Shown here: one piece after another, positions 51,968 to 54,189 of the stretch | Numbering within the stretch: position 1 is the first letter of the stretch | How the letters are laid out: each line of letters starts with the position of its first letter | Assembly (NCBI GenBank): GCA_025353585.1 | Contig: JANXOM010000189.1 | Span: forward strand, 1-64,000 | Length of the DNA: 64,000 nt | Direction: 5' to 3' | Source of the DNA: Deltaproteobacteria bacterium | GTDB taxonomy: Bacteria > Myxococcota_A > Polyangia > Haliangiales > Haliangiaceae | Program-made: the position numbers and the translations under genes | The notes under the pieces: model-generated | What the model was told of the DNA's origin: nothing | Seen by the model: only the letters and a program-made list of their open reading frames with translations | The model's database searches: none

Positions 51968-52776
51968 GGTGCCTGGTGCGTATGCACGTCAGGCGCCACC
52001 GGCGGGCCGCCCGGGCCCGCTGGATCGACCCCGAAGAACGCCACGAGCTGCGCGTACACCTCGGGGAGGTCCTCGCGTAGCTCCGCGGGCTTCTCGAAGA
52101 AGACCTCCGTCGCGCACGCGAAGTACTCCGCCTCGTTCGTGATCGCGTAGTCGCGCAGGAAGCTCCGCTCGCCTCTCTCGGCTCGCGCGACGTGGCGCTG
52201 GAACGCGGGCTCGAACGCGGCGGCCCAAGCGCGGCGCCCGGCGGCGTCGAGCGGCGGCGTCCCATCGGCCGAGCCGTCGAGGAAGTCGATCTTGTGCGCG
52301 AGCTCGTGGATGACGAGGTTGCGGCCGTCGTGCGGGTGCCGCGCCCCGCGCGCCACGTCGTCCCACGCGAGCACCACCGCGCCGCCGCGCTGCGCGAGCC
52401 CGAGCACGGGCTGCTCGTCGCGGCGCGGGGTCAGCGTGTTGTACGTCATCCATTGGGGCTGCCGCGCGATGACGGCGTGCGGATAGATGACGATCGACTC
52501 CACGTCCGCGAACAGATCGTGGTCGCGCGCGAGGATCATCAGGCACGCCGTGCCCGCGATGGTCACGCGCATCTCGTCGGTGACCTCGAGGCCGCCGGCG
52601 CCCTCGCAGTGCTTCTCCGCGACGAACACCTGCGTCAGCGCGCGCAGCCGCTCCTGCTGCTCGGGCGGCAGCTGCATGTATGCCGCGACGTTCGCGCCGA
52701 GATACGCGCGCCACGCATCGGGAAACGGAGTCTCGAGCAGGTGCGCCCGGCGCCGCTCGGTGAGCCAATGGAACAT
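51964..52776 (-). CDS. mtfA: MtfA-family zinc-dependent peptidase (M90)
   Basis: HELAHKIDFLDGSADGTPPL plus downstream ATEVFFEKPAEL typical of MtfA. Confidence 0.92.
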   Translation of the reverse strand: MFHWLTERRRAHLLETPFPDAWRAYLGANVAAYMQLPPEQQERLRALTQVFVAEKHCEGAGGLEVTDEMRVTIAGTACLMILARDHDLFADVESIVIYPHAVIARQPQWMTYNTLTPRRDEQPVLGLAQRGGAVVLAWDDVARGARHPHDGRNLVIHELAHKIDFLDGSADGTPPLDAAGRRAWAAAFEPAFQRHVARAERGERSFLRDYAITNEAEYFACATEVFFEKPAELREDLPEVYAQLVAFFGVDPAGPGGPPVAPDVHTHQAP

Positions 52777-54104
52777 CAAGTGCGCTTCGTGCCGCGTTTG
52801 CCAAGGCGCTTCTCGAGCCCCGCGATCGGCGTGAAGGTGAACTTTCGACCGGACCGACCCTGCACGAGGAACCCTTCATTTGCGAGCTTCAGGAGATCCG
52901 TCCGCGCTGTCTGGTTTGTTACGCGGTGACTGTTTTGATGTCCTTCGATCGTGTAGCGGGCGTCCGGGTGCCGAAGCGCATGGCCGAGGACGGCGAGCTG
53001 TCGATGGTTGAGATCGTCACGTCCGTGAAGTTGGGTCTCTACAGTTCGAACGTCGGCAACTTTCCGTGCCAGGTACGTCATCAAGGCGTCGATGGCTTTC
53101 CGGACGACGTCGAGTTGGTGAAGCAAGAAGTACGTCGCATCGTAGCCGTCGGTCTCGACGAGTTGGTACGCGCGGTCGTAAGCGCCACGCGACTTCTTGA
53201 TGACGCTCGAGATCGAGAGGAACTCCGTCAACCAGTAGCCCTGGCGCAACATCGACCAGTAAAACAGTGCGCGTGCGGTGCGCCCGTTGCCGTCGACGAA
53301 CGGGTGCTCGTAGGCGAGCCAGAGGTGGAGGATGATCGACCGAACGACCGGGTGAATAAATGGACCGTCTCCATCGGTCTCGTTCGCAAACGCACACATG
53401 AGCGCGACCCGGTCGGGAAGAGACACGGCGGGCGGGGGCACATGAATGACGTCTCCCGTGGTCACATCGATCACGCGGACGTTCTCGTCCGCCCGGCGGA
53501 ATCGCCCGGCGCCGTCCGTGCCGGTGTCGAGCGCGTCTGATGTTACGAGCGACTGAAGTTCCAAGAGCCGCGCGACCGTCAACGGTTCTTTGACGTGAGC
53601 TCGGACCCATTCCATGGCCTGGTAGTTGTTCAAAATCATCCGCTCGCTGTGATCGCGAGGGGGACGCTGGGTCCGGAGCATTTCTTCGGCAACGATACGG
53701 GTCGTCGATGCTCCCTCGAGTTGGCTCGAAGTGATCGCCTCTTCGATCAGTGAGCTGACGATGTAGCGGTCGCGCGTGGCTCGGTTCGTCACGTCCTCTG
53801 GGAGCTCGATCCGACCGCTCGCGTCTCTGTCGACTTGATGCACCAAGCGCTGAACCGCGTCTGTCACGACGAACATGAAGGACGCTCCATCGGAAGCGCG
53901 AAGTGGGAGGATGCGGTGAACCTGGGTTCGTTCCCACCGAAGTAACTGCCACCAGTCCTCGTGCGTCAACGCCTCCGGGGGCGGGCGGCGACGAAGATCG
54001 TCCCAGTGTAGGTATCGGGGATCCGGTGGCAATTCGGAACGCCGACGAATCAGCTCGATAACCCGAGCAAAATCAACGGTCGGCGGTGCTGCGGGGAACG
54101 CCAT
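52776..54104 (-). CDS. Fic-domain protein
   Basis: HPFVDGNGRTAR Fic motif, N-terminal inhibitory motif SSQLEG, C-terminal winged-helix-like region. Confidence 0.94.
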   Translation of the reverse strand: MAFPAAPPTVDFARVIELIRRRSELPPDPRYLHWDDLRRRPPPEALTHEDWWQLLRWERTQVHRILPLRASDGASFMFVVTDAVQRLVHQVDRDASGRIELPEDVTNRATRDRYIVSSLIEEAITSSQLEGASTTRIVAEEMLRTQRPPRDHSERMILNNYQAMEWVRAHVKEPLTVARLLELQSLVTSDALDTGTDGAGRFRRADENVRVIDVTTGDVIHVPPPAVSLPDRVALMCAFANETDGDGPFIHPVVRSIILHLWLAYEHPFVDGNGRTARALFYWSMLRQGYWLTEFLSISSVIKKSRGAYDRAYQLVETDGYDATYFLLHQLDVVRKAIDALMTYLARKVADVRTVETQLHGRDDLNHRQLAVLGHALRHPDARYTIEGHQNSHRVTNQTARTDLLKLANEGFLVQGRSGRKFTFTPIAGLEKRLGKRGTKRT

Positions 54105-54171
54105 TCCTAATCTCTGCGAGTTTAGTAGCCGATTGGGACCAGACGAACTACTAAAAAATGCCAGATTAGGA
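54105..54171 (-). promoter_or_regulatory. nested symmetric palindrome upstream of fic (putative operator)
   Basis: TCCTAATCT (54105-54113)/AGATTAGGA (54163-54171) and TTTAGTAG (54121-54128)/CTACTAAA (54148-54155), all centred on 54138. Confidence 0.6.
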
Positions 54172-54189
54172 GCAAATTAGCAGAGCGAA

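What the first reader, a model, noticed from the sequence alone, without database searches (positions are those of the whole stretch)
54105..54171. Nested, exactly symmetric double palindrome upstream of fic
Two inverted-repeat pairs (TCCTAATCT/AGATTAGGA and TTTAGTAG/CTACTAAA) share the same centre (54138), with equal 7-nt gaps on both sides and a 19-nt core. This AT-rich ~67-bp structure ends right at the fic ATG. Exact symmetry of four half-sites is unlikely by chance and suggests an operator for a tetrameric regulator, possibly the Fic protein's own C-terminal winged-helix-like domain, or an RNA structure controlling translation.
Basis: seen in the sequence. Interest (0 to 1): 0.6.

Follow-up and report, generated by a model that had tools for sequence, protein, structure and literature searches.

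The report
Self-operator of a Fic enzyme gene
The symmetric DNA in front of this fic gene is two copies of a binding site that the gene's own enzyme very probably uses to switch itself off; related genes in other bacteria carry matching sites whose letters change together with the enzyme's DNA-reading residues.

Summary
The four half-sites are real, letter for letter. Comparison with 60 homologs re-parses them: not one nested double palindrome but two tandem 25-bp operators, CTCCTAAT-N9-TTTAGTAG (54148-54172) and CTACTAAA-N9-ATTAGGAA (54104-54128), 44 bp centre to centre. Any two copies of one palindrome look concentric, which explains the 'exact symmetry'. Odd-centred dyads in this register are strongly enriched before fic homologs (perfect 8+9+8 in 21/60, 0.7 expected; 0/60 inside genes). 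In the 8-Mb genome the only two matches with at most one mismatch are these two. Half-site letters co-vary with residues 397, 398 and 402 of Fic: over 21 phylogenetically independent pairs, 397 ranks first of 430 columns for half-site position 10 and 398 first for position 9. A structure prediction places all three in the recognition helix of a C-terminal winged helix-turn-helix. Best explanation: negative autoregulation of a class II Fic enzyme by its own wHTH, as shown for CccR of Yersinia, but with a different operator and an apparent residue-to-base code. Operator plus gene sit as a ~1.4-kb cassette that two sister species lack. Binding and repression are inferred, not shown. RNA-hairpin and tetramer readings are disfavoured.

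The parts
54148..54172 (-). Operator 1 (distal): CTCCTAAT-N9-TTTAGTAG, centre 56 nt upstream of the fic ATG
   Evidence: 0 mismatches to CTMCTAAW-N9-WTTAGKAG; one of only two places in the whole genome; same architecture upstream of homologs
54104..54128 (-). Operator 2 (proximal): CTACTAAA-N9-ATTAGGAA, centre 12 nt upstream of the ATG; overlaps the A of the start codon and an AGGA Shine-Dalgarno-like tetramer
   Evidence: 1 mismatch to the pattern; the other genome-wide match; half-sites read
54129..54147 (.). 19-nt segment between the two operators (the finding's 'core')
   Evidence: not conserved; centre-to-centre distance of doublets varies from 36 to 117 bp among homologs
52776..54104 (-). 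fic, 442 aa class II Fic protein, the proposed autorepressor
   Evidence: Pfam Fic E 4.3e-13; PADLOC SoFic model E 3.9e-40; AlphaFold2 pLDDT 87, pTM 0.85
53712..53729 (-). Inhibitory-helix motif SSQLEG (residues 126-131), class II Fic
   Evidence: S126, S127, E130, G131 invariant or nearly so in 46 homologs
53271..53306 (-). Fic catalytic motif HPFVDGNGRTAR (residues 267-278)
   Evidence: mostly invariant or nearly invariant columns
52827..53006 (-). C-terminal winged helix-turn-helix (residues 367-426)
   Evidence: AlphaFold2: helices 367-378, 386-393, 397-409, strands 413-418 and 421-426
52878..52916 (-). Recognition helix (residues 397-409); N397, Q398 and T402 co-vary with half-site letters
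   Evidence: 398 and 402 rank 1 and 2 by mutual information; 397 first of 430 columns for offset 10, 398 first for offset 9 in independent pairs

Best explanation
The element is a doublet of dimeric operators for the Fic protein encoded directly downstream. A Fic dimer places its two C-terminal winged helix-turn-helix domains on the two half-sites of one operator (CTMCTAAW-N9-WTTAGKAG, half-site centres 17-19 bp apart). Binding at the proximal site covers the start codon and ribosome-binding region; binding at the distal site lies about 44 bp upstream, probably over the promoter. Together they shut down fic expression, so the level of a potentially toxic AMP-transferase is kept low and self-limited. 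Shown here: the doublet, its conservation, its genome-wide near-exclusiveness to fic, and co-variation of half-site letters with recognition-helix residues. Inferred: physical binding, dimer stoichiometry, repression rather than activation, position of the promoter, and the link to toxicity or defence.
For: Odd-centred dyads: perfect 8-bp arms with N9 in 21/60 homolog upstreams against 0.73 expected; at least 7/8 in 36/60 against 6.3; control regions 2/59 far upstream and 0/60 in the gene. Architecture holds across two searched phyla plus plasmid and phage-like records although letters change (CTACTAAT, CTCCTAAT, ATCCTAAT, CGGCTAAT, TTATCAAT, nnnGCAAT, CTATAGAT). The site occurs essentially only before fic: both matches in the window's genome are these. 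Letters co-vary with residues 398 and 402 (top two columns), and 397 and 398 rank first of 430 columns for offsets 10 and 9 over 21 phylogenetically independent pairs (p 4.4e-5 and 8.4e-4 before correction for multiple columns). AlphaFold2 puts these at the start of the recognition helix. Precedent: CccR, a class II Fic with C-terminal HTH, binds an inverted repeat in its own promoter and represses it (PMC9755527).
Against: No binding or expression data. No sigma-70-like promoter was found, so repression by promoter occlusion is assumed. Within each window operator only 6 of 8 pairs are complementary, while cross-site pairs are 8/8 and 9/9, so this genome's copy alone would favour the nested parse. 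Some homologs (L008, L041, L049, L053, L092) showed no clear site. Half-sites for the co-variation test were partly curated by hand in one register.
Confidence: 0.87

Rival explanations
1. A leader-RNA structure: the transcript folds into a long nested hairpin that hides the start codon and controls translation of fic.
For: The 86-nt leader folds at -25.3 kcal/mol, z -3.2, with nested stems over the AGGA/AUG; in this genome the nested pairs are perfect whereas adjacent ones are 6/8.
Against: Many homologs have a single operator (e.g. L037, L040, L057, L086, L090), so no nested stem is possible. In 16 other doublets adjacent complementarity is at least as good as nested (8.47 against 8.03 of 10). 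Operator distance varies from 36 to 117 bp while the N9 spacer is kept. Half-site letters follow residues of the protein's recognition helix. No Rfam family matches. Any two copies of one palindrome can pair in RNA.
Confidence: 0.05
2. A nested operator for a Fic tetramer: two dimers bridge the four half-sites around the 19-nt core.
For: Four half-sites are concentric; 12 of 17 doublets have centres 36-49 bp apart, so cooperative contact between two dimers is possible.
Against: Single operators are common, spacing between operators is not fixed, and the fixed unit is the N9 dyad.
Confidence: 0.05
3. An operator for another regulator, not Fic itself.
For: Not excluded by the DNA alone; the site could be read by a different HTH protein.
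Against: No second regulator gene is next to fic in the window; the site is found essentially only before fic; its letters change with Fic's own recognition helix.
Confidence: 0.03
4. Chance symmetry with no function.
For: About 0.15 such concentric pairs per shuffled 64-kb window.
Against: Conserved architecture in homologs only 35-56% identical in protein.
Confidence: 0.01

Closest known systems
CccR (YPK_0951) of Yersinia pseudotuberculosis, class II Fic with C-terminal HTH, PDB 7XUX (PMC9755527)
   Same: Class II Fic with an N-terminal inhibitory motif and a C-terminal HTH; inverted-repeat operator in its own promoter; negative autoregulation shown there by footprint, EMSA and reporter
   Different: CccR operator is AGATAATCAT-N26-ATGATAATCT; here 8-10-bp half-sites are 9 nt apart, often in two copies, and residue-to-base co-variation is visible. 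Overall fold similarity is modest (TM about 0.43, 17% identity). CccR is a T6SS effector; nothing seen here suggests secretion
SoFic (SO_4266, PDB 3EQX/3ZCN; SoFic anti-phage defence family of PADLOC)
   Same: Best structural match (E 8.7e-11); PADLOC SoFic model matches residues 114-422 at E 3.9e-40
   Different: 20% identity; far below the NCBIfam SoFic equivalog cut-off (37.8 against 550 bits); I know of no published SoFic operator
CbFic2 of Coxiella burnetii (PDB 8CIL, PMC10628234)
   Same: Class II Fic with C-terminal winged HTH that binds DNA; DNA binding promotes dimerisation and alters activity
   Different: Random DNA was used there, and no operator or autoregulation was reported in the passages read; different N-terminal domain (DUF4172)
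Autoregulated toxin-antitoxin operators (e.g. AbiE, phd-doc; from general knowledge)
   Same: Gene of a toxic protein kept low by a DNA-binding partner on inverted repeats
   Different: There a separate antitoxin binds the DNA; here toxin-like enzyme and repressor are one protein

Membership tests
Class II Fic protein | Fic motif HxFx(D/E)GNGRxxR | tested here: met
   HPFVDGNGRTAR, residues 267-278; Pfam Fic above cut-off
Class II Fic protein | Inhibitory motif (S/T)xxxE(G/N) N-terminal to the Fic motif | tested here: met
   SSQLEG at 126-131; E130 and G131 invariant in 46 homologs
Class II Fic protein | AMP transfer activity | not testable with these tools
   needs biochemistry
CccR-like Fic autorepressor (works like) | C-terminal HTH in the Fic polypeptide | tested here: met
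   AlphaFold2 winged HTH at 367-426
CccR-like Fic autorepressor (works like) | Inverted-repeat operator in its own promoter region | tested here: met
   two dyads directly upstream, conserved in homologs
CccR-like Fic autorepressor (works like) | Direct binding and repression | not testable with these tools
   inferred from co-variation
CccR family (is a member of) | Same operator spacing (N26) | tested here: not met
   N9, or N10 in a few homologs
SoFic equivalog (NCBIfam NF046030) | Score above curated cut-off of 550 bits | tested here: not met
   37.8 bits
Anti-phage defence Fic | Protection against phage | not testable with these tools
   only a PADLOC profile match and patchy, cassette-like occurrence
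RNA leader element | Match to a known RNA family | tested here: not met
   no Rfam match in this region
RNA leader element | Nested stems conserved across homologs | tested here: not met
   and single-operator homologs

The most novel reading that the evidence does not exclude
A widespread, mobile single-gene module in which a Fic enzyme and its private operator evolve as lock and key: residues 397, 398 and 402 of one helix set the operator letters, giving each lineage its own address. Occupancy of the operator both represses the gene and holds the enzyme in a safe dimer, so disturbance of that balance (for example during phage infection) releases an active toxin.
Probability: 0.2. Interest if true: 0.75.

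Novelty: new variant of a known kind. Interest (0 to 1): 0.58.

Why it matters
One Fic (CccR) had been shown to repress itself. These data suggest that self-repression is the rule in a whole subfamily found in at least two large bacterial groups and on plasmids, define the operator grammar (half-site, N9, half-site, often twice), and offer a testable residue-to-base code. It gives a simple account of how a potentially harmful enzyme gene without a separate antitoxin could travel as a 1.4-kb unit and be kept quiet in a new host.

Tried and rejected
Nested or tetrameric pairing as the conserved unit: rejected, since single dyads are common and spacing between operators is free. RNA hairpin: tested by folding, Rfam and pair comparison. 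A regulon beyond fic: genome searches found essentially no other sites (exceptions are a 22-copy repeat in G758 with one mismatch and single sites in G857 and G592). Generality to all Fic proteins with HTH: 21 distant Fic genes (about 25-33% identity) showed no excess of N9 dyads, so the grammar seems specific to this subfamily. A consensus promoter scan found nothing. Viral contigs gave no relatives. Literature searches found CccR, CbFic2 and SoFic work but no description of this operator; only an open-access library was searched.

Full report
Observation. Both inverted-repeat pairs are present exactly as described, on one centre (54138), and abut the ATG of fic on the minus strand. Each pair occurs once in the 8-Mb genome. 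In shuffled windows about 0.15 such concentric pairs are expected per 64 kb, so the symmetry alone is suggestive rather than decisive; its place in the 85-bp gap before fic makes it notable.

Re-parse by comparison. The first homolog found outside the genome's own group (Luteolibacter pohnpeiensis, 45% identical; L003) has CTCCTAAT-N9-ATTAGGAG and CTCCTAGT-N9-ATTAGGAG directly before its fic. Read the same way, the window holds CTCCTAAT-N9-TTTAGTAG (54148-54172, minus strand) and CTACTAAA-N9-ATTAGGAA (54104-54128). These are two tandem operators 44 bp apart. The window copies are imperfect: each has one CTCCTAAT-type and one CTACTAAA half-site, in mirror order, so 6 of 8 pairs match within a site and 8/8 and 9/9 across sites. 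Since the sister homolog L005 (53-56% identical) has Y397 with CTACTAAT and the window has N397, this may be an operator caught part-way through a change of letters (inference).

Conservation. I gathered 60 homologs from the window's phylum, the Luteolibacter phylum, plasmids and one phage-like record. In the 172 bases around the start, perfect 8-bp arms with N9 occur in 21/60 against 0.73 in dinucleotide shuffles; odd spacers from 3 to 19 are all enriched because the arms extend over offsets of about 5-14 from a base-centred dyad. Control regions gave 2/59 and 0/60. Many homologs carry two operators, most often 36-49 bp apart. A few use N10 (L005, L047, L081, L083). More distant Fic genes lack this grammar.

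Who reads it. The letters differ between homologs in step with the motif at the start of the predicted recognition helix: YQTARTD with CTACTAAT, NQTA with CTCCTAAT, HQTARDD with ATCCTAAT, RQTARTD with CGGCTAAT, YATARAD with TTATCAAT, xNTARAD with CAAT ends. Ranking all alignment columns by mutual information with the half-site puts residues 398 and 402 first and second. With a tree built without the HTH region and 21 phylogenetically independent pairs, residue 397 ranks first of 430 columns for half-site offset 10 (the base changed in 8/8 pairs where the residue changed, 1/13 where it did not; p 4.4e-5) and 398 first for offset 9 (4/5 against 0/16; p 8.4e-4); p values are uncorrected, the ranks are the internal control. 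AlphaFold2 (pLDDT 87, pTM 0.85) shows a winged helix-turn-helix at 367-426 with recognition helix 397-409, so the co-varying residues lie in its first two turns.

Scope. With up to one mismatch the operator pattern has exactly two matches in the window's genome, both here, and in 18 other genomes almost all matches lie before fic. This argues for autoregulation without a wider regulon.

Function of the gene. The protein is a class II Fic enzyme (SSQLEG, HPFVDGNGRTAR), structurally nearest to SoFic, then CbFic2 and other Fic proteins including CccR, and matches the PADLOC SoFic defence model. It is rare: about 4-8% of genomes in the searched groups. In sister species G001 and G014 the flanking ketoacyl-ACP synthase III and M90 peptidase genes are directly adjacent, without fic (L115, L121); in the window fic with its 85-bp operator region lies between them, its TGA overlapping the ATG of the M90 gene. 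So operator and gene appear to have arrived together as a ~1.4-kb cassette.

Mechanism. Best supported is negative autoregulation: Fic dimers occupy the two operators, the proximal one covering the start codon and AGGA, the distal one probably the promoter. Direct support exists for CccR, where the HTH part binds an inverted repeat and represses its own promoter (PMC9755527). CbFic2 shows that DNA binding can change Fic dimerisation and activity (PMC10628234), so a second role of the operator in holding the enzyme in check is conceivable but untested. SoFic is hard to clone without tight repression (PMC12249575), which fits a need for low expression.

RNA alternative. The leader folds well (z -3.2), but single-operator homologs, free inter-operator spacing, no advantage of nested over adjacent pairing (8.03 against 8.47) and the protein co-variation speak against it.

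Limits. No experiment; half-sites partly hand-curated; promoter not located; the literature check covers open-access papers only.

Noticed in passing
window 52774-52778 and 54190; L115, L121: fic plus operator sits between a ketoacyl-ACP synthase III gene and an M90 peptidase gene that are directly adjacent in two sister species: an insertion of about 1.4 kb without obvious mobile-element genes.
   Followed up: partly
genome G758 (L110 and 21 further places): A 25-bp sequence CTCCTAAATTGGCCTGAATTACGAG, one mismatch from the operator pattern, is repeated 22 times, often about 100 bases from contig ends; looks like part of a repeated element.
   Followed up: no
L022, L024: More distant Fic genes (28-31% identical) carry a different dyad around GATAGTATCA/TGATACTATC near their start, possibly another Fic self-operator type.
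   Followed up: no
window 54104-54111; L003 2988-2999; L078; L080: In CTCCTAAT-type operators the proximal half-site (ATTAGGAG) also contains a Shine-Dalgarno-like AGGA(G) very close to the ATG, so operator and ribosome-binding site overlap.
   Followed up: partly
L005, L047, L081, L083: A minority of homologs use an N10 spacer; whether their linker before the wHTH differs was not examined.
   Followed up: no
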